Origin: Actinomycetes bacterium
GTDB taxonomy: Bacteria; Actinomycetota; Acidimicrobiia; Acidimicrobiales; Palsa-688
Direction of reading: 5' to 3'
Length of the DNA stretch: 6,435 bases
Assembly (NCBI GenBank): GCA_021827225.1
Contig: JAKAXG010000058.1
Location: 5,461 to 11,895 of the forward strand
The notes beneath the pieces are model-generated. The model did not search any database. It saw only the letters and a list, made by a program, of their open reading frames with translations, and was not told the origin of the DNA. The position numbers and the translations under genes were made by a program. Positions 1 through 6,435 of this stretch are shown one piece after another (within the stretch, counting starts at the first letter, position 1; the number at the start of each line of letters is the position of its first letter).

Positions 1-383
1 TTCCGATCTCGCTCTATGTCCTCGATGAGCATCCGGATCATCCGGGGGGTGAAGCCCTTCGACACCAGCCGGCGGTAGCGCTCGTGCTTGGGCGGGTCCA
101 TGTTGAGGATGGTCAGGCGCAGGCTGGCCAGCACCTCCTCCTCGGCGGTCGGGATGAACGTGGCCCCCAGCTCCGAGGAGAAGGTCCGCCAGTCGTGGCT
201 GCACCTCTTGACGTCGGCGTGCTTGGTGAGCGCCCAGAAGCCCGGGCCCCCGTCGTGCTCGGGATGCCAGTAGACCGGGGCTTCGCGCCGCAGCCGGTCG
301 AACTGGTCGTGGGGGACCCTCTCGCCCCAGGTCTCGGCCAGCAGGTCGATGCCCTGCAGGCTCTCGTGCTCGATCGTGGTCAA
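1..383 (-). CDS. Cytochrome P450, N-terminal part (runs off the left edge)
   Basis: The first 127 codons of a cytochrome P450, a haem monooxygenase; the gene continues beyond position 1. The translation has the bacterial P450 N-terminal layout: a VPHDQFDRLRREAPVYWH segment (residues 23-40), FWALTKHADVKRCSHD (49-64), TFSSELG (67-73) and a diagnostic helix-C block MDPPKHERYRRLVSKGFTPR (95-114), in which the conserved His and Arg contact haem propionates. The block resembles actinobacterial steroid/lipid P450s of the CYP125/CYP142 type, but the I-helix, ExxR and haem-Cys motifs are outside the window, so the subfamily and substrate are not assignable. The start is TTG at 381-383, chosen because it overlaps the TetR stop (TTGA) and follows GGGGGAG at 5-6 bases. 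There is no membrane anchor, so the protein is probably cytosolic. It is likely cotranscribed with and translationally coupled to the TetR gene. Confidence 0.9.
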   Translation of the reverse strand, partial: MTTIEHESLQGIDLLAETWGERVPHDQFDRLRREAPVYWHPEHDGGPGFWALTKHADVKRCSHDWRTFSSELGATFIPTAEEEVLASLRLTILNMDPPKHERYRRLVSKGFTPRMIRMLIEDIERDR

Positions 384-991
384 GGTAGCTCCCCCTGTGT
401 TCGGGTGCGGGTGGATGGTCGGGTGTCCGGAGGTCGGCCGCCGATGACGACGCTCCGGAGGGCGTCGATGGCGAACTCGTCGGTGACGGCGGCGGGGTCG
501 ATCCGCCTCATCATCTCCAGGCCGAGCAGGAGCCCGATCACGGCCGGTCCCACGGACCCGCCGGGGGCGGCCCACGCCTCGTCCACCCCGGCCCACGCCG
601 CCTGGTAGCGGCGGGCCAGGCGTTCCCGTGCCGGCTCGTTGCGCGCCGCGTAGCTCCACAGCTCGTGCTCGAGGGCGATCCACCGGCCGTCGCCGGTGAC
701 CGGACGGGACACGTTGCGCCACAGCGCGGCCATCTGTTCCTCGATGGAGCGGGCCGCCGCCAGCTCGGCGCCGATCACCGCGGTCACGTCATCGACCCAG
801 CCTTCGAGGAGGGCGAAGAGCAGGCCGTCCTTGCCTCCGAAGTGGTCGTACACGGCCCCGGAGGTGCGCCCCGCCGCCTCTGCGATGGCGTCGACCGAGG
901 CACCCTCGATGCCCCGGGCCGCGAACAGTTCGGCGGCGGCGTCCAGCAGCGCCCGGCGGGTCTGGGCTCGTCGCTCCAGCTGGGTGGCCAC
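380..991 (-). CDS. TetR/AcrR-family transcriptional regulator
   Basis: A 203-residue TetR-type repressor. The N-terminal DNA-binding domain is clear: RAQTRRALLDAAAELFAARG (about 8-27) leads into the helix-turn-helix (about 30-51) ending GRTSGAVYDHF, followed by the typical GKDGLLFALLEGW. The C-terminal two thirds (about 65-185) is helical and variable, as expected for the ligand-binding and dimerisation domain; the last 15 residues are polar and probably disordered. The GTG at 989-991 is preferred because it puts the TetR domain in the normal position and sits where transcription should begin from the TATAAT at 997-1002. The stop overlaps the P450 start by four bases, so the regulator and P450 form an operon. 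Autoregulation and control of the P450 are likely from context; the ligand is unknown. TTG at 994-996 is out of frame. Confidence 0.93.
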   Translation of the reverse strand: MATQLERRAQTRRALLDAAAELFAARGIEGASVDAIAEAAGRTSGAVYDHFGGKDGLLFALLEGWVDDVTAVIGAELAAARSIEEQMAALWRNVSRPVTGDGRWIALEHELWSYAARNEPARERLARRYQAAWAGVDEAWAAPGGSVGPAVIGLLLGLEMMRRIDPAAVTDEFAIDALRSVVIGGRPPDTRPSTRTRTQGELP

Positions 992-996
992 GGCAA

Positions 997-1029
997 ATTA
1001 TATTGGCATCGTTATGTAACTTTTGTCAA
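997..1029 (-). promoter_or_regulatory. Probable promoter of the TetR-P450 operon, apparently leaderless
   Basis: On the minus strand a perfect TATAAT (997-1002) lies five bases before the TetR GTG start, so transcription should begin at or within a base or two of the GTG, giving a leaderless mRNA of a kind common in Actinobacteria. A perfect TTGACA (1024-1029) lies upstream, but the 21-base spacing exceeds the usual 16-19, so it may not act as a -35 with this -10. The stretch is AT-rich against a very GC-rich background. Its lack of a Shine-Dalgarno sequence fits leaderless translation. Confidence 0.55.
998..1019. promoter_or_regulatory. Candidate TetR operator (imperfect inverted repeat)
   Basis: Arms TTATAT (998-1003) and ATGTAA (1014-1019) are inverted with five of six positions matching, separated by 10 bases, and cover the -10 element of the TetR promoter. 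Position and size suit an autoregulatory TetR operator. The symmetry is imperfect and does not extend inward, so the assignment rests mainly on location. Confidence 0.3.
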
Positions 1030-1046
1030 GCCCACGGAAGAGAGAG

Positions 1047-1065
1047 GTACCCTGGGGGGTATGGG
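1047..1065. promoter_or_regulatory. CsoR-like GC-rich pseudo-palindrome, copy 1
   Basis: The plus strand reads GTACCCTGGGGGGTATGGG. Its reverse complement has ATACCCCCCAGGG, nearly the same as the core of the element at 3531-3550. The TACCC...GGGTAT shape resembles operators of the CsoR/CstR/RcnR metal- and persulfide-sensing repressors. It lies about 18 bases upstream of the TTGACA in front of tetR, in the 156-base gap between the OsmC stop and TetR start. No CsoR-type gene is in the window. TACCCT within it could alternatively be a plus-strand -10 hexamer. The rest of this gap shows no convincing gene or terminator. Confidence 0.3.
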
Positions 1066-1147
1066 ATGCTGCGGATGGCGACCCCACGACGACAAGCCGC
1101 CATGGCCGACGCCCGGGGCGCTGGTACGCCCCTCCACCCCGGAGCTG

Positions 1148-1609
1148 TCAGGCCCCGGATCCGTCCCCGATACCGGTGACCTGCACGTCGACGGGGATGC
1201 CGGCGCGGACACTGGCGGTGACGACACAGAAGTCCTCGAATAGGTTCAGGCAGCGCTGCATCCGGGGCCGGTCGGCCTCGTCCACGTCCATCTCGATGGT
1301 CACGCTCAGGCCGGGTATGCGCAGCCGTCCCTTGTCGTTGCGGTCCGTGGAGCCCGTCACCACCGTGTGGACACCGTTGACCTGGATGTGGGCCCGCTCG
1401 AGGCAGTAGAGGGCGCTGGCGCTCAGACAGTGACCGACCGCGGCGGCGAGCACCCGGGAGGCGTTGGGCCCGCTGGCCTCACCGAGGGGAGGAGGCTCGT
1501 CGATGATCCAGGGTTCCACCCCGCTGACACCGAAGTCCGCGCTGAAGCGGTAGCGCTCCTGCTGATCGAGCCGTACCTCGAATCCCGATGGGGCGTCTGT
1601 TTCTGCCAT
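1148..1609 (-). CDS. OsmC/Ohr-family protein (putative thiol peroxidase-like)
   Basis: A 153-residue protein with the OsmC fold signature. A first conserved Cys lies in AAAVGHCLSASALYCLERA (Cys61) and the second in FEDFCVVTASVRAGIPV (Cys128), the positions of the peroxidatic and resolving cysteines in OsmC/Ohr proteins, which reduce organic hydroperoxides as dimers. Cys69 and Cys120 are extra. The glycine/proline-rich segment EPPPLGEASGPNASRVLAAA (38-57) is the usual approach to the active-site helix. Length is normal for the family. The ATG at 1607-1609 is chosen; GGAGG-type sequence lies about 11-12 bases upstream, a rather long spacing. The gene follows the MFS exporter by 61 bases and probably shares its transcript. 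Members differ in substrate (hydroperoxides, possibly persulfides), so a precise Ohr/OsmC label is withheld. Confidence 0.9.
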   Translation of the reverse strand: MAETDAPSGFEVRLDQQERYRFSADFGVSGVEPWIIDEPPPLGEASGPNASRVLAAAVGHCLSASALYCLERAHIQVNGVHTVVTGSTDRNDKGRLRIPGLSVTIEMDVDEADRPRMQRCLNLFEDFCVVTASVRAGIPVDVQVTGIGDGSGA

Positions 1610-1624
1610 GGATGCACTCTTCCT

Positions 1625-1648
1625 CCCTCCCTGTCACGCGGGGGAGGG
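1625..1648 (-). promoter_or_regulatory. Hairpin overlapping the OsmC ribosome-binding site
   Basis: In the minus-strand transcript CCCTCCC (1642-1648) can pair perfectly with GGGAGGG (1625-1631) across a 10-base loop. The 3' arm overlaps the GGGAGGGAGGA that is the only Shine-Dalgarno sequence before the OsmC ATG. The structure could limit initiation or partly end transcription after the MFS gene; no U-tract follows, which disfavours a classic terminator. Confidence 0.4.
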
Positions 1649-1670
1649 CCGAAGGTCCCTGCCGGAGCTT

Positions 1671-3254
1671 TCAGTGGGCGGCCCCGGCGTGGGCGGCGCC
1701 GGAGACGAAGTCCTTCGTGCGGATGAGGGCGAAGGCGGCCACGCCGCTGGCCAGGGCCAGGACGGCGGCGACCAGGAGGATCTCGTTCAGGGCCGAGCTG
1801 AACGCTCCCCGGGCCACGTGGGCGAGCGTCGCCCGCTGGGCGGCCGGCACGCTGTTGAAGAGCTGGCCGACCTCGCCGTTCTGCAGGCCCGAGACGATGG
1901 TCGCGCTGTGGCCGGCCAGAGCGGTCCCGGTGGCCAGGCTGATGACCGAGCTGGTCAGGCGGCTGCTGAACAGGGTTCCGAGCAGGGCGATCCCGGTCGA
2001 GATGCCGACCTGGCGGAAGGTGGAGTTGATGCCGGAGGCCATGCCCGACTGCTGCGGTGGCACCACGCCGACCGCGGTCGAGGCCAGAGGGGGGTTGATG
2101 AACCCGACCCCGATACCGCCCAGGACCATGCCGGCGATCAGGTGGGTCCAGCCGGACGAGGCGTGCAGGCCCCGCATCAGCAGGAGCCCGACCCCGACGG
2201 CTATCAGCCCCGGACCGATCAGCGCCCGGATCGGGACGTGGGCGGTGAGCCGCCCGGCCAGCCCGCTGACCGCCAGTATCCCGCCGGAGAGGACCAGCAG
2301 CCGCAGGCCGGTCTGTAGGGCGCTGTAGCCGAGGACGTCCTGGAGGTAGATGGTCAGGTACAGCAGCACGGAGAAGATGCTGACCGAGACGCCGAACGCG
2401 GCGATGGCGCCACCGGTGAAGGTCGGTAGCCGGAACAGCTCGAGGTCGAACATCGGGTGGGGAACCCTGGCCTCGGCTACCACGAAGCCGACCAGGAGCA
2501 CGGCGGCGACGGCGAACGACAGGTCCACCCCGGTGGAGGTGAAGCTCGACTGGCTGGACTCGATCAGGGCGTAGATCAGGGCCACCAGCCCGCCGGTGAA
2601 CAGCACGAAGCCGGCCCAGTCCGGGCGGCGGGCGTGCTCGTTGCGCGATTCGGCGACCTTCTTGAAGGTGATGGCCAGGGCCACGACCCCGATCGGCAGG
2701 TTGACGAAGAAGATCCACCGCCACGACAGCCCGGTCACCAGAGCGCCCCCCACGATGGGGCCGATGGCCACCGCCACCCCGGTGATGGCACCCCATATGC
2801 CGAAGGCCATTCCCCGCTCCCTGCCCTGGAAGGCGGTGGCCAGCAGGGCCAGCGACACCGCGAACATGGTGGCGCCCCCGATGCCCTGCAGGGCCCGGGA
2901 CAGTTCGAGCATGACGGGGGACTGGGCCGCGCCGCACAGGCCCGAGGCCCCCGTGAAGGCCACCAGCCCGGCCATGTACATCTTGCGGCGACCGTACATG
3001 TCGGCCAGCGAACCGGACGTGAGGAGGAACGCCGCCAGGGTGAGGGCGTAGGCGTCCACCACCCACTGCAGGTCGGCGAACGTCGAGTGCAGGGCCGACT
3101 GGATGGCCGGCAGGGCCACGTTGACGATCGTGATGTCCAGCAGCAGCATGAACGTCCCGAGGCACACCGCGGCCAGCGTCCACCACTTGGTGTCGGCGGG
3201 AGTGAGGTCCTTCCGCTCGGGGCCGGCCTCAGCGGTGGTCTGGTCGATCGCCAT
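1671..3254 (-). CDS. DHA2 (EmrB/QacA)-type MFS drug exporter, 14 TM
   Basis: A 527-residue inner-membrane proton antiporter of the 14-helix DHA2 family. After a polar N-terminus (1-24), helix 1 carries motif D1, LDITIVNVALP (39-49). Motif A, GSLADMYGRRK (81-91), is between helices 2 and 3; motif B, SRALQGIGG (119-127), is in helix 4; antiporter motif C, GVAVAIGPIVGG (159-170), is in helix 5; WRWIFFVNLPIG (178-189) follows. Family length is usually 470-550, so the gene is complete. Substrates range from antibiotics and dyes to lipids and cannot be predicted. I chose ATG 3252-3254 over an open frame reaching GTG 3320, because the extra 22 residues are not family-like and contain the hairpin at 3300-3317. 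No strong Shine-Dalgarno sits before the ATG; TTG at 3261-3263 is a possible alternative. It lies 78 bases after the small Cys-rich gene and 61 before the OsmC gene. Confidence 0.93.
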   Translation of the reverse strand: MAIDQTTAEAGPERKDLTPADTKWWTLAAVCLGTFMLLLDITIVNVALPAIQSALHSTFADLQWVVDAYALTLAAFLLTSGSLADMYGRRKMYMAGLVAFTGASGLCGAAQSPVMLELSRALQGIGGATMFAVSLALLATAFQGRERGMAFGIWGAITGVAVAIGPIVGGALVTGLSWRWIFFVNLPIGVVALAITFKKVAESRNEHARRPDWAGFVLFTGGLVALIYALIESSQSSFTSTGVDLSFAVAAVLLVGFVVAEARVPHPMFDLELFRLPTFTGGAIAAFGVSVSIFSVLLYLTIYLQDVLGYSALQTGLRLLVLSGGILAVSGLAGRLTAHVPIRALIGPGLIAVGVGLLLMRGLHASSGWTHLIAGMVLGGIGVGFINPPLASTAVGVVPPQQSGMASGINSTFRQVGISTGIALLGTLFSSRLTSSVISLATGTALAGHSATIVSGLQNGEVGQLFNSVPAAQRATLAHVARGAFSSALNEILLVAAVLALASGVAAFALIRTKDFVSGAAHAGAAH

Positions 3255-3299
3255 GGCGACCAACCTACCCGGGGCGGCTTTCTCCTGAAGCAGGCGGTC

Positions 3300-3317
3300 G
3301 GCGGCCCGCGGGCCGCC
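3300..3317. terminator. Perfect 18-bp GC palindrome, possible factor-dependent terminator or attenuator
   Basis: GGCGGCCCG followed by its exact reverse complement CGGGCCGCC. It begins 16 bases after the stop of the small Cys-rich gene and ends 46 bases before the MFS ATG on the minus strand. It can form a very stable GC hairpin, but no T-run follows in either direction, so it is at best a U-less terminator of the type proposed for high-GC bacteria, an attenuator, or a protein-binding site. Confidence 0.4.
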
Positions 3318-3332
3318 CACCCTGGGGCCCCG

Positions 3333-3564: not shown

Positions 3565-4839
3565 TCAGGTCTGCGCCCGGAGCCGGTAGAGGTCCTCGCC
3601 GGCTTCGGGGACCACCAGGGTGGAGGGGCGGGCCGACCATTCCCCGATGTCCACCCTGGCGGGGTCGAGGTAGTCCAGGTTCACCGCCCGCACCACCTCT
3701 TCGGGTATGCCGGTCGCCAGCGTCACCCGCACCCGGGGCCGCTCCCCCCGGACCGGGTCGTAGGTTCCCGCCCCCCGCAGGTGCGTCGAGTGGGCCAGCT
3801 CCCCCCACGGGCGGTCCCGGTAGCGGTCCCACTGCTTCACGAAGTAGTCACGGCAGTGGTAGCCGATCTCCTTGATGCCGGGATGGGTGACGCTGATCTC
3901 GGTCAGGTGGGGGGCGTAGATGACGACCTCACCACCGTCGGCGACGACCGGTTCGACCTTGTAGAAGCCCTTGGCCCCGGTCCACAGATCGGCGTAGCGG
4001 GTCGGCAGCACCGACAGGACCCGCTCGACCGGGGACTCCAGGTACCGGATGTGGGTCCGGGCCGACACCCGGGCCGCTACCGCCCACGCCTCCTCGGGCC
4101 GGCCGAGGGCGGCGTGGTGCAGGCCGCCGCCGGCCGCCGTCACCACGCAGAGGGCCAGTCGCTGCCCCGGCACCATCGCCGCCGCCTCGTCGATCAGCGC
4201 CCTCACCGGGGTCCGGCCCGGGGTGCCGATGATCTCGGCGCTGGTGATCAGGGCCCCCAGCCAGTGGGAAACGTCGATCATCTCGGGTCCGGAGACGCCG
4301 GGGAAGAGGTACTTGTTGCCGCCGGAGAATCCCACCACCTCGTGGGGGAACACCGGCCCGACGATCAGCGTGGTGTCGTGCTCGACGACGGCGCGGTTCA
4401 CCCGCACCGTCACCTCCTGGGCCAGCCGTCCCTCCGACAGCTGCGCGACCCTCTCCGCCCCGATCCGTCCGATCGTCACCAGCGCCGCCGGGTCCCACCA
4501 CTCGTGGTTGCCGACCGTCAGGCCGGGATAGCGGTCCGCCAGCCGGCCCGGGCGGAAACCCAGGTGGGAGGCCAGCGCCTCCTCACCCATGGGCTGGTGG
4601 GTGCCGAGAGCGACGATGACGCTGAGCCGTTCAACCCGCCGGTGCAGGGCCTGGTGCACGGCGGCCAGGAGCGTCGGCAGGGGGCAGGTCCGGGTGGCGT
4701 CGGGTACCAGCACGCACACGCTGCGGCCCCGCAGCGCTGCCGCGTCGAGCGCCTCCAGCACGAAGTCCCGGACCTGGCCGTCGGTGAGGACGGCCTCCGG
4801 CCCACCTGTCTGGGGTACCGCTCCGCCCGGACTCGCCAT
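3565..4839 (-). CDS. LarA-family nickel-pincer-nucleotide racemase/epimerase (DUF2088)
   Basis: A 424-residue LarA homologue, the same length as lactate racemase. LarA enzymes epimerise the carbon bearing a 2-hydroxy acid's hydroxyl by hydride transfer to a nickel-pincer nucleotide (NPN). Visible landmarks: PDATRTCP (46-53) matching the N-terminal D-x-T-R motif; ALGTHQPMGEEAL (77-89) with catalytic His81 (LarA His108); FPHEVVGFSGGNKYLFPG (164-181) with catalytic His166 and cofactor-binding Lys176, ten residues apart as for His174/Lys184; and VSH with nickel-ligand His192, 26 after His166 as for His200. The active site looks intact. ATG 4837-4839 follows GGAGG by eight bases; the longer frame to 4938 lacks family similarity. 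It is divergent from uronate isomerase, so an aldonate or uronate-derived hydroxy acid is a better substrate guess than lactate. Cofactor genes larB, larC and larE are absent from this window. Confidence 0.9.
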   Translation of the reverse strand: MASPGGAVPQTGGPEAVLTDGQVRDFVLEALDAAALRGRSVCVLVPDATRTCPLPTLLAAVHQALHRRVERLSVIVALGTHQPMGEEALASHLGFRPGRLADRYPGLTVGNHEWWDPAALVTIGRIGAERVAQLSEGRLAQEVTVRVNRAVVEHDTTLIVGPVFPHEVVGFSGGNKYLFPGVSGPEMIDVSHWLGALITSAEIIGTPGRTPVRALIDEAAAMVPGQRLALCVVTAAGGGLHHAALGRPEEAWAVAARVSARTHIRYLESPVERVLSVLPTRYADLWTGAKGFYKVEPVVADGGEVVIYAPHLTEISVTHPGIKEIGYHCRDYFVKQWDRYRDRPWGELAHSTHLRGAGTYDPVRGERPRVRVTLATGIPEEVVRAVNLDYLDPARVDIGEWSARPSTLVVPEAGEDLYRLRAQT

Positions 4840-4948
4840 ATCGCTCGCCTCCGCCTCCCTCGCTGACCAGGAAGGTCCGTTCCCGGACCCGGGCACCGGC
4901 CGGCCGGTTGCCTTTGCGGCCCCACCCCGGCCCGCCAATCATAGGGAC
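4840..4948. promoter_or_regulatory. Divergent LarA/UxaC promoter region with two inverted repeats
   Basis: The 109 bases between the two divergent starts contain two perfect symmetric elements: GGTCCG-TTCC-CGGACC (4874-4889) and ACCGGCCGGCCGGT (4895-4908), five bases apart. Both are placed so that one bound regulator could control both genes, for example a uronate-responsive GntR, LacI or IclR protein; no such gene is in the window. I could not identify convincing -10/-35 pairs in either direction. In GC-rich DNA the second element, being only C/G apart from its end bases, could arise by chance more easily than the first. Confidence 0.4.
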
Positions 4949-6370
4949 ATGGACGAGCTGGACCGCCGCCTGCAACTGCACCCCGACCGCCTCCTCCCGG
5001 TCGAGCCGGCACAGCGGGAGGTGGCCCGGCGCATATACCGGGAGGTGCGCGACCTGCCCATCGTCTCGCCCCACGGGCACGTCGATCCGAGCCTGCTGCT
5101 GGAGGACCTCCCCTTCCGGGATCCGGTCTCCCTGCTGATCACCCCGGACCACTACGTGACCCGCCTCCTCCACGCCGACGGCGTCGGCCTGGAGCAGCTG
5201 GGGGTCGGCCAGGGACCGCTGCCCGAGGCGGCCGCCCGGCAGGCCTGGCGCCTGTTCTGCGAGCGGTGGCCGCTGTTCCGGGGGACGCCGGTCCGGGCCT
5301 GGATGGAGGCGGAACTGTCGCAGATATTCGGCCTGGATCTGGCCCCCTCCGCCCGGAACGCCGACGGGCTGTTCGACGCCCTGTCCGCCCGGCTGGAGCG
5401 GCCGGAGTTCCGCCCCCGGGCACTCTACGAGCGCTTCGCCATCTCGGTGCTGGCCACCACCAACGACCCCTGCGACGACCTGGCGGCCATCTCGGGCCTG
5501 GCCGCCGACCCGGCCTGGTCGGGCCGGGTGGTCCCGGCGTTCCGCCCCGACCGCTACCTGGAAGCCGGTCAGCCGGGGTGGGTGGGCCTGACCGACCGCC
5601 TGGCCGAGGCCGCGGGGGTCGATACCGGCAGTTACGAGGGCTACGTGCAGGCCCTGGAGCAGCGCCGCCGGTTCTTCATCGTCCACGGCGCCACCTCGGC
5701 CGATCACAGCCACGCCGACGTCGGGACCCTGTCCCTGTCGCCGGCCGAGGCCGCCCGGATCTACCGGGCCGCCCGGTCCGGGCAGGCCGGCCCGGCGGAG
5801 ACGGTGGCCTTCCGCCGGCACATGCTGGGGGAGATGGCCCGCATGTCCTGCGACGACGGCCTGGTCATGACCCTGCACCCCGGGGTGCGCCGGAGCCACC
5901 ATGGGCCCACCGCCGCCCGCTTCGGTGGCGACACCGGCCACGACATCCCCCTCCGGGTGGAGTTCACCGACCCGCTGCGGCCCCTGCTGGAGCGCTACGG
6001 TACCCATCCGGGTTTCCAGCTGGTGCTGTTCACCGTGGACGAGACCGTCTGGTCCCGGGAGCTGGCGCCGCTGGCCGGCTTCTACCCGTCGGTGTTCATC
6101 GGGGTGCCGTGGTGGTTCCTCGACGCCCCTGACGCCATCCGCCGCTTCCACGCCGCGGTCACCGAGACCGCCGGGTTCTCGCGCCTGTCGGGTTTCGTCG
6201 ACGACACCCGGGCCTTCTGCTCGATACCGGCCCGCCACGACATGTCGCGCCGGGTGGACGCCGGGGTCCTGGCCCGGCTGGTCTGCGAGCACCGCCTGGC
6301 CGAGGAGGAAGCGGTGGACACCGCCATCGGCCTGGTGTCACGGCAGCCGTACCGGGTGTTCAAGCTGTGA
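4949..6370 (+). CDS. uxaC: Uronate isomerase (glucuronate/galacturonate isomerase)
   Basis: A 473-residue member of the amidohydrolase-fold uronate isomerases, cytosolic enzymes converting D-glucuronate to D-fructuronate and D-galacturonate to D-tagaturonate. Family marks in order: LPIVSPHGHVDPSLLLEDLP (36-55) with metal-binding His42 and His44; VLATTNDPCDDL (167-178); VHGATSADHSHADVG (245-259); the lid/substrate segment SHHGPTAARFGGDTGHDIP (316-334); FYPSVFIGVPWWFLD (378-392); VDDTRAFCSIPARHDMSRRV (417-436), equivalent to the tDSRsF...RHeyFRR region; and C-terminal PYRVFKL. Length matches the usual ~470. ATG 4949-4951 is chosen because the family N-terminus begins there; AGGG lies only 3-4 bases upstream, so initiation may be weak or partly leaderless. 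The sequence is divergent (HGH rather than HCH, DTR rather than DSR), but key residues are kept. The stop overlaps the next frame by GTGA. Confidence 0.93.
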   Translation: MDELDRRLQLHPDRLLPVEPAQREVARRIYREVRDLPIVSPHGHVDPSLLLEDLPFRDPVSLLITPDHYVTRLLHADGVGLEQLGVGQGPLPEAAARQAWRLFCERWPLFRGTPVRAWMEAELSQIFGLDLAPSARNADGLFDALSARLERPEFRPRALYERFAISVLATTNDPCDDLAAISGLAADPAWSGRVVPAFRPDRYLEAGQPGWVGLTDRLAEAAGVDTGSYEGYVQALEQRRRFFIVHGATSADHSHADVGTLSLSPAEAARIYRAARSGQAGPAETVAFRRHMLGEMARMSCDDGLVMTLHPGVRRSHHGPTAARFGGDTGHDIPLRVEFTDPLRPLLERYGTHPGFQLVLFTVDETVWSRELAPLAGFYPSVFIGVPWWFLDAPDAIRRFHAAVTETAGFSRLSGFVDDTRAFCSIPARHDMSRRVDAGVLARLVCEHRLAEEEAVDTAIGLVSRQPYRVFKL

Positions 6371-6435
6371 CCGCCCGGCCGCTGACCCGCGGCGGCGGAG
6401 GAGGCCGGCCCGCCGGGCCGGTCCGGCTGGTGCAC
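6367..6435 (+). CDS. Probable start of a mannitol-dehydrogenase-family reductase (UxuB/UxaB-like), truncated at edge
   Basis: GTG at 6367-6369 overlaps the uxaC stop (GTGA) and opens a 23-codon frame to the edge: MTARPLTRGGGGGRP followed by AGPVRLVH. The ending PVRLVH is just what precedes LGLGNF/LGLGAFHRAH in the first Rossmann beta strand of long-chain mannitol dehydrogenase-type enzymes, which include fructuronate reductase (UxuB) and tagaturonate reductase (UxaB). Those enzymes act directly after UxaC, reducing fructuronate to mannonate or tagaturonate to altronate with NADH. The identification rests on six residues plus context, so it is a prediction. A hairpin at 6403-6423 (arms CCGGCCC/GGGCCGG, loop GCC) falls inside this reading frame; if no gene exists, it could instead be a U-less terminator for uxaC. 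Confidence 0.5.
   Translation, partial: MTARPLTRGGGGGRPAGPVRLVH

What the first reader, a model, noticed from the sequence alone, without database searches (positions are those of the whole stretch)
3565..6435. LarA-type nickel-pincer epimerase paired with a hexuronate isomerase and a probable ketouronate reductase
A LarA homologue with intact His81, His166, Lys176 and His192 is divergent from uxaC, which overlaps a frame resembling the start of an UxuB/UxaB-like reductase. Published LarA relatives include a D-gluconate 2-epimerase and malate racemases, so the family handles aldonates. Hypothesis: glucuronate to fructuronate (UxaC), to mannonate (reductase), then C2 epimerisation of mannonate to gluconate (LarA homologue), feeding the gluconate pathway without the usual mannonate dehydratase. 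A related reaction on altronate or another hydroxy acid is possible. The enzymes are seen; the pathway is inferred.
Basis: partly seen in the sequence, partly recalled or inferred. Interest (0 to 1): 0.72.

Follow-up and report, generated by a model that had tools for sequence, protein, structure and literature searches.

The report
Nickel epimerase in glucuronate breakdown
A soil actinobacterium appears to break down the sugar acid glucuronate by flipping mannonate into gluconate with a nickel-cofactor enzyme instead of dehydrating it, a route proposed before in a heat-loving bacterium and, to judge from relatives, used by many actinobacteria in place of the usual enzyme.

Summary
In detail: a LarA homologue with all published catalytic and cofactor residues lies divergent from uxaC, whose end overlaps a frame resembling UxuB starts. 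No genome is held for the window, so I tested relatives. The protein is far closer to T. maritima gluconate 2-epimerase GntE2 than to lactate or malate racemases. Within 10 kb in 80 related loci: uxuB 51, uxaC 49, larE/C/B 27/26/25, gluconokinase-like kinase 16, 6-phosphogluconate dehydrogenase 10. In 296 genomes of one actinobacterial class, 15 carry this LarA clade, 12 of them with UxaC. Among 46 UxaC genomes, a mannonate dehydratase (UxuA or ManD) occurs in 1 of 12 LarA+ and 31 of 34 LarA- genomes. LarC is in 47 of 47 LarA+ genomes and 1 of 34 controls. Best reading: glucuronate > fructuronate > mannonate > gluconate > 6-phosphogluconate, the nickel epimerase replacing mannonate dehydratase. 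The route was proposed for T. maritima and the activity shown for GntE enzymes, so this is a widespread new member of a known kind. The substrate, and the order of kinase and epimerase, are unproven.

The parts
3565..4839 (-). LarA-superfamily (nickel-pincer nucleotide) epimerase, probable D-mannonate/D-gluconate 2-epimerase, 424 aa
4840..4948 (.). 109-bp divergent intergenic region, presumably holding both promoters (inference)
   Evidence: Sequence; the strict LacI-type consensus was found in 0 of 35 such regions, this one included
4949..6370 (+). uxaC, glucuronate (uronate) isomerase, 473 aa
   Evidence: NCBIfam NF002794 508.5 bits, cut-off 387; Pfam PF02614 227.4 bits
6367..6435 (+). first 23 codons of the next gene, probably uxuB (fructuronate reductase, mannitol dehydrogenase family), overlapping the end of uxaC by 4 bases
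   Evidence: Frame read; resemblance to UxuB starts of relatives; uxuB follows uxaC within 400 bp in 40 of 80 loci

Best explanation
The locus is part of a glucuronate catabolic cluster in an actinobacterium. UxaC isomerises D-glucuronate to D-fructuronate, the UxuB-type reductase makes D-mannonate, and the LarA homologue, using the nickel-pincer cofactor made by LarB, LarE and LarC, inverts C2 by proton-coupled hydride transfer to give D-gluconate. An FGGY gluconokinase and 6-phosphogluconate dehydrogenase then deliver ribulose-5-phosphate to the pentose phosphate pathway. The epimerase takes the place of mannonate dehydratase (UxuA or ManD). Shown here: the genes, their linkage in relatives, the tie to the cofactor gene larC, and the near-complementary distribution with dehydratases. 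Inferred: the chemical step, its substrate, and that the window's organism has the remaining genes.
Against: 3 of 15 LarA+ genomes in the sample lack UxaC, two of them with PF04295; 17 of 58 loci of 19 kb or more show neither uxaC nor uxuB nearby. One LarA+ UxaC genome (G244) has ManD, and six more have weaker matches to that model, under its cut-off. In a second set, 3 of 29 UxaC+ LarA+ genomes also have UxuA (ManD not searched there). T. maritima itself rings for UxuA, and S. litoralis is reported to carry a mannonate dehydratase (PMC7953866), so the two routes can coexist. Kinase and Gnd are linked in a minority of loci. GntE1 of C. glutamicum, which probably belongs to this clade, has a KM of 120 mM for mannonate and its discoverers suspected another native substrate (PMC7583248). 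Kinase and reductase matches lie under NCBIfam cut-offs. An AU test did not reject a tree placing GntE2 with the lactate-type rows (p 0.48). The Fisher tests ignore shared ancestry, and genome completeness is not told.
Confidence: 0.82

Rival explanations
1. Kinase first: the linked FGGY kinase phosphorylates mannonate, and the LarA homologue epimerises 6-phospho-D-mannonate to 6-phospho-D-gluconate.
For: That order was measured in Lactobacillus suebicus extracts, with the structural genes not yet identified (PMC6978723, abstract and Discussion). It could explain the 120 mM KM of GntE1 for free mannonate (PMC7583248).
Against: GntE2 acts on free mannonate with kcat 197 per s (PMC7583248); the loop motif is like that of groups assayed on free mannonate. 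Kinases of two families (FGGY in actinobacteria, GntK type in Alteromonadales), both best matched to gluconokinase models, accompany the epimerases.
Confidence: 0.12
2. The native substrate is another C6 acid (for example an aldarate such as glucarate/mannarate), and linkage to UxaC/UxuB reflects general uronate metabolism.
For: Suggested for GntE1 by its discoverers from the high KM and the uronic-acid context of its group (PMC7583248). Some LarA+ genomes lack UxaC.
Against: The near-complementary distribution with mannonate dehydratases and ManD beside UxaC-UxuB in LarA- genomes point to mannonate; Gnd is in the neighbourhood in 10 of 80 loci.
Confidence: 0.05
3. A lactate or malate racemase that happens to neighbour uronate genes.
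For: Names given by sources call relatives nickel-dependent lactate racemase.
Against: 57.4 bits against the lactate model (cut-off 460) and 98.0 against a malate model (cut-off 500); structure, loop and context differ.
Confidence: 0.01

Closest known systems
GntE2 / LarAH20 of Thermotoga maritima (PDB 4NAR) and the T. maritima hexuronate route proposed by Rodionova et al. 2012
   Same: Same fold, same catalytic and cofactor residues, same Glu after the catalytic His; encoded with a fructuronate reductase and gluconate kinase (PMC6978723 Discussion)
   Different: 31% identity; other phylum; clusters here also hold beta-glucuronidase, lar cofactor genes and Gnd in part of the loci; GntE2's second loop residue is Ser, here Val; T. 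maritima also rings for UxuA
GntE1 / LarAH19 of Corynebacterium glutamicum
   Same: Actinobacterial; mannonate/gluconate epimerase activity shown (PMC7583248).
   Different: The C. glutamicum sequence itself was not obtained, so membership is inferred; in the four genomes UxaC lies about 15 kb (two) or about 300 kb (two) from larA, not adjacent
LarAH group 18, NCBIfam NF052594 putative hexonate epimerase (Catenovulum, Saccharobesus)
   Same: Same Glu-Val loop; found with gluconokinase and lar genes, and with uxaC or gnd
   Different: Window scores 157.9 bits, cut-off 500; group 18 sits beside or is fused to a GntK-type kinase, not FGGY
UxuA / ManD mannonate dehydratase routes
   Same: Same UxaC-UxuB upper pathway
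   Different: Dehydration to 2-keto-3-deoxygluconate instead of C2 epimerisation

Membership tests
LarA superfamily (NPN-dependent 2-hydroxyacid racemases/epimerases) | Lar_N domain above Pfam cut-off | tested here: met
   77.2 bits, cut-off 23.3
LarA superfamily (NPN-dependent 2-hydroxyacid racemases/epimerases) | Catalytic D72, H108, H174, K298 and cofactor R75, K184, H200 (LarA numbering, PMC7583248) | tested here: met
   D47, H81, H166, K290, R50, K176, H192 aligned and invariant
LarA superfamily (NPN-dependent 2-hydroxyacid racemases/epimerases) | Cofactor genes larB, larC, larE in the same genome | tested here: inconclusive
   Not testable in the window's genome; LarC in 47 of 47 genomes with the clade, all three genes within 10 kb in 22 of 80 loci
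D-gluconate 2-epimerase (GntE) | Closer to GntE than to lactate/malate racemases by sequence and structure | tested here: met
   split 100/99 in the tree, but the AU test there did not reject another place for GntE2
D-gluconate 2-epimerase (GntE) | Loop Glu-Val/Ser after the catalytic His | tested here: met
   E167 V168 in all 21 clade rows of the tree
D-gluconate 2-epimerase (GntE) | Interconverts D-mannonate and D-gluconate | not testable with these tools
   Needs an assay of holoenzyme
NCBIfam NF052594 (group 18) | Score over the curated cut-off 500 | tested here: not met
   157.9 bits
LarAH group 19 (GntE1) | Falls in one clade with C. glutamicum LarAH19 | tested here: inconclusive
   Corynebacterium-like proteins nest in the clade; the named sequence was not obtained
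Lactate racemase NF033504 | Score over the curated cut-off 460 | tested here: not met
   57.4 bits
Malate racemase NF052593 / NF052595 | Score over the curated cut-offs 500 / 462 | tested here: not met
   98.0 / 75.2 bits
Glucuronate isomerase UxaC NF002794 | Score over the curated cut-off 387 | tested here: met
   508.5 bits
UxuB fructuronate reductase | Mannitol dehydrogenase domains | tested here: inconclusive
   Only 23 codons lie in the window; a relative's gene (L040) matches PF01232 and PF08125 and best matches fructuronate reductase, 239.5 bits, under its cut-off 603

The most novel reading that the evidence does not exclude
The clade works on phosphorylated substrate: the linked kinase makes 6-phosphomannonate and this nickel enzyme is a 6-phosphomannonate 2-epimerase, an activity measured in L. 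suebicus extracts whose gene had not been identified (PMC6978723). In that case a nickel-pincer enzyme would act on a sugar-acid phosphate, which I did not meet in the papers I looked at.
Probability: 0.12. Interest if true: 0.7.

Novelty: new member of a known kind. Interest (0 to 1): 0.52.

Why it matters
Genome comparison suggests that UxaC-bearing actinobacteria of this class handle mannonate either by dehydration or by nickel-dependent epimerisation, rarely both (1 of 12 LarA+ genomes in the sample). That proposes a native substrate for a LarA group whose role was left open, a redox-balanced entry of glucuronate into the pentose phosphate pathway (fructuronate reduction costs one NAD(P)H, 6-phosphogluconate oxidation returns one; from known chemistry), and a testable nickel requirement for growth on glucuronate. 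Sources that name these proteins mostly call them lactate racemase, which is probably wrong.

Tried and rejected
Whole-genome search for the window: none held. LacI operator: the consensus TGNNANCGNTNNCA occurs in 0 of 35 divergent intergenic regions, a looser form in 4 (shuffle mean 2.4), so no regulator site is claimed. Lactate and malate racemase readings rejected by score, fold and context. Group 18 membership rejected by cut-off. PF03786 and PF04295 alone left 15 of 34 LarA- UxaC genomes without a dehydratase; adding ManD left 2 (G213, G229). Six LarA+ genomes have matches to the ManD model under its cut-off (G020, G106, G127, G134, G263, G317); I count them as other members of that superfamily, which I did not test. 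The alignment searches scored only 5-6 candidates per genome, so a LarA gene could have been missed. Rfam and promoter/terminator scans were not run. Rodionova 2012 is not held; I rely on its description in PMC6978723 (abstract and Discussion seen) and PMC7583248 (passages, and sections 7 and 8). PMC11770544 and PMC7953866: passages only. Searches for print on this actinobacterial route: (25 of 178 listed); no listed title or abstract start described it, but most subscription journals are not held. Rows dropped: frames of L098, L107 and L108, two of them over-long, left out of the trees; LarA hits of 57 bits or less (10 genomes) not counted as the clade. In the tree the clade was not one side of a branch (one row, L094, fell with GntE2 and group 18, 79/67). 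The link of model NF011654 to ManD was recalled and then checked on 3 proteins, which pass the ManD equivalog cut-off.
Full report
What is in the window. The finding's region holds a LarA-superfamily gene (3565-4839, minus), a divergent uxaC (4949-6370, plus) and the first 23 codons of a gene whose GTG lies 4 bases before the end of uxaC. The rest of the window, on the minus strand, is an EmrB-type MFS transporter, an OsmC-like protein, a TetR regulator and part of a P450-like protein, with no evident connection. No whole genome is held for it, so what I say about genes beyond 6435 comes from relatives.

Context in relatives. Within up to 10 kb: uxuB-type reductase 51, uxaC 49 (34 divergent with under 400 bp between matches), LacI regulator 37, larE 27, larC 26, larB 25, beta-glucuronidase 17, FGGY kinase 16, Gnd 10, GPH transporter 7. 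The three kinases scanned match gluconokinase best, under its cut-off. Some loci are short because contigs end; of the 58 that are 19 kb or longer, 39 have uxaC, 39 have uxuB and 17 have neither. uxuB follows uxaC within 400 bp in 40 of 80, and the starts that could be read (19 of 47 rows) look like the window's 23 codons. Two Embleya megaplasmids carry LarA divergent from uxuB-larE-larB-uxaC.

A less biased sample. In 296 genomes drawn from the class of Knoellia sinensis (G020, itself included), 46 have UxaC, 18 have UxuA, 16 of them over cut-off, and 15 have the LarA clade with a clear score gap, 508 bits and up against 57 and down. UxaC is in 12 of 15 LarA+ and 34 of 281 LarA- genomes (Fisher 1.7e-8; 8.5e-8 without G020). 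In 9 of those 12 the two genes lie on one contig within about 7 kb.

Replacement of the dehydratase. Among the 46 UxaC genomes, UxuA (PF03786) is in 0 of 12 LarA+ and 11 of 34 LarA-; PF04295 (altronate/galactarate dehydratase family) in 0 of 12 and 18 of 34; the enolase-type mannonate dehydratase (NF011654 over cut-off) in 1 of 12 and 26 of 34. Either mannonate dehydratase: 1 of 12 versus 31 of 34, Fisher 3.0e-7; any of the three: 1 of 12 versus 32 of 34, Fisher 6.6e-8. The exception is G244; six other LarA+ genomes have matches to NF011654 under its cut-off. ManD lies within about 10 kb of UxaC in 12 of the 27 genomes that have it. In three of these twelve, which I read, the order is UxaC-UxuB-ManD, and all three proteins pass the ManD equivalog cut-off. 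So the same upper pathway carries either ManD or the nickel epimerase. In a second set of 34 genomes chosen because they have the LarA clade, UxaC is in 29 and UxuA in 4, three of which also have UxaC; ManD was not searched there. Elsewhere the routes coexist: T. maritima rings for UxuA in the controls, and S. litoralis is reported to have a mannonate dehydratase (PMC7953866 passages). The tests ignore relatedness, and genome completeness is not reported.

Cofactor. LarC is in 47 of 47 genomes with the clade (LarB and LarE were not searched genome-wide) and in 1 of 34 UxaC+ LarA- genomes. This makes nickel-pincer dependence very likely.

Corynebacterium and group 19. In 351 genomes of the family of Nocardia carnea (G015), 6 carry the clade (538 bits or more; next 83), four of them small genomes of 2.4-3.2 Mb that I take to be Corynebacterium (inference; unnamed). 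Their proteins nest in the window's clade (100/100). larE and larB lie beside larA in three of the four, and about 5 kb away in the fourth. UxaC is in all four and in G413 (5 of 5); it lies about 15 kb from larA in two of the four and about 300 kb away in the other two. In the two read, UxuB follows UxaC. C. glutamicum, the source of assayed GntE1/LarAH19 (PMC7583248), rings in the named controls for UxaC and LarC but not for UxuA or PF04295. For NF011654 it rings, but whether over the cut-off is not told. The window's clade is therefore probably group 19. GntE1's KM of 120 mM for mannonate led its discoverers to suspect another substrate; the distribution found here argues for mannonate, or its phosphate.

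Support from another phylum. In marine Alteromonadales, sister-group proteins sit in a run with uxaC, a GntK-type gluconokinase, larC and larB (Catenovulum), or are fused to the gluconokinase in one 589-residue protein, in a run with larE, larB, a tagaturonate epimerase and gnd (Saccharobesus).

Verdict. Most likely a D-mannonate/D-gluconate 2-epimerase in a glucuronate-to-pentose-phosphate route, replacing mannonate dehydratase. The route was proposed for T. maritima and the activity has been shown for GntE enzymes, so it is a known kind; its breadth in this class and the near exclusion with dehydratases are what I add. The chemistry, and the order of kinase and epimerase, remain to be assayed.

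Noticed in passing
L122:5449-7218 (Saccharobesus litoralis plasmid): Natural fusion of a GntK-type gluconokinase (residues 3-157) and a group 18 LarA homologue (171-581), annotated only as gluconokinase, in a run with larE, larB, a UxaE-type epimerase and gnd.
   Followed up: partly
L144, L145, L146: Three LarA- genomes of the class carry UxaC-UxuB-ManD in one direction, the counterpart of the LarA clusters.
   Followed up: yes
window 1-3320, minus strand: EmrB-type MFS transporter, OsmC-like protein, TetR regulator and a P450-like fragment, all on one strand and with no evident link to uronate metabolism.
   Followed up: no
G176: UxaC+ genome with LarC and ManD but no LarA found by the clade's profile; either another NPN enzyme, a missed gene or an incomplete assembly.
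   Followed up: no
G244: The one LarA+ UxaC genome in the sample that also has ManD; it has a second, distant LarA hit too.
   Followed up: no
Kribbella loci (for example L042, L043, L051): LarA clade member with neither uxaC nor uxuB within 10 kb; the genome of L042 (G022) has UxaC elsewhere.
   Followed up: partly
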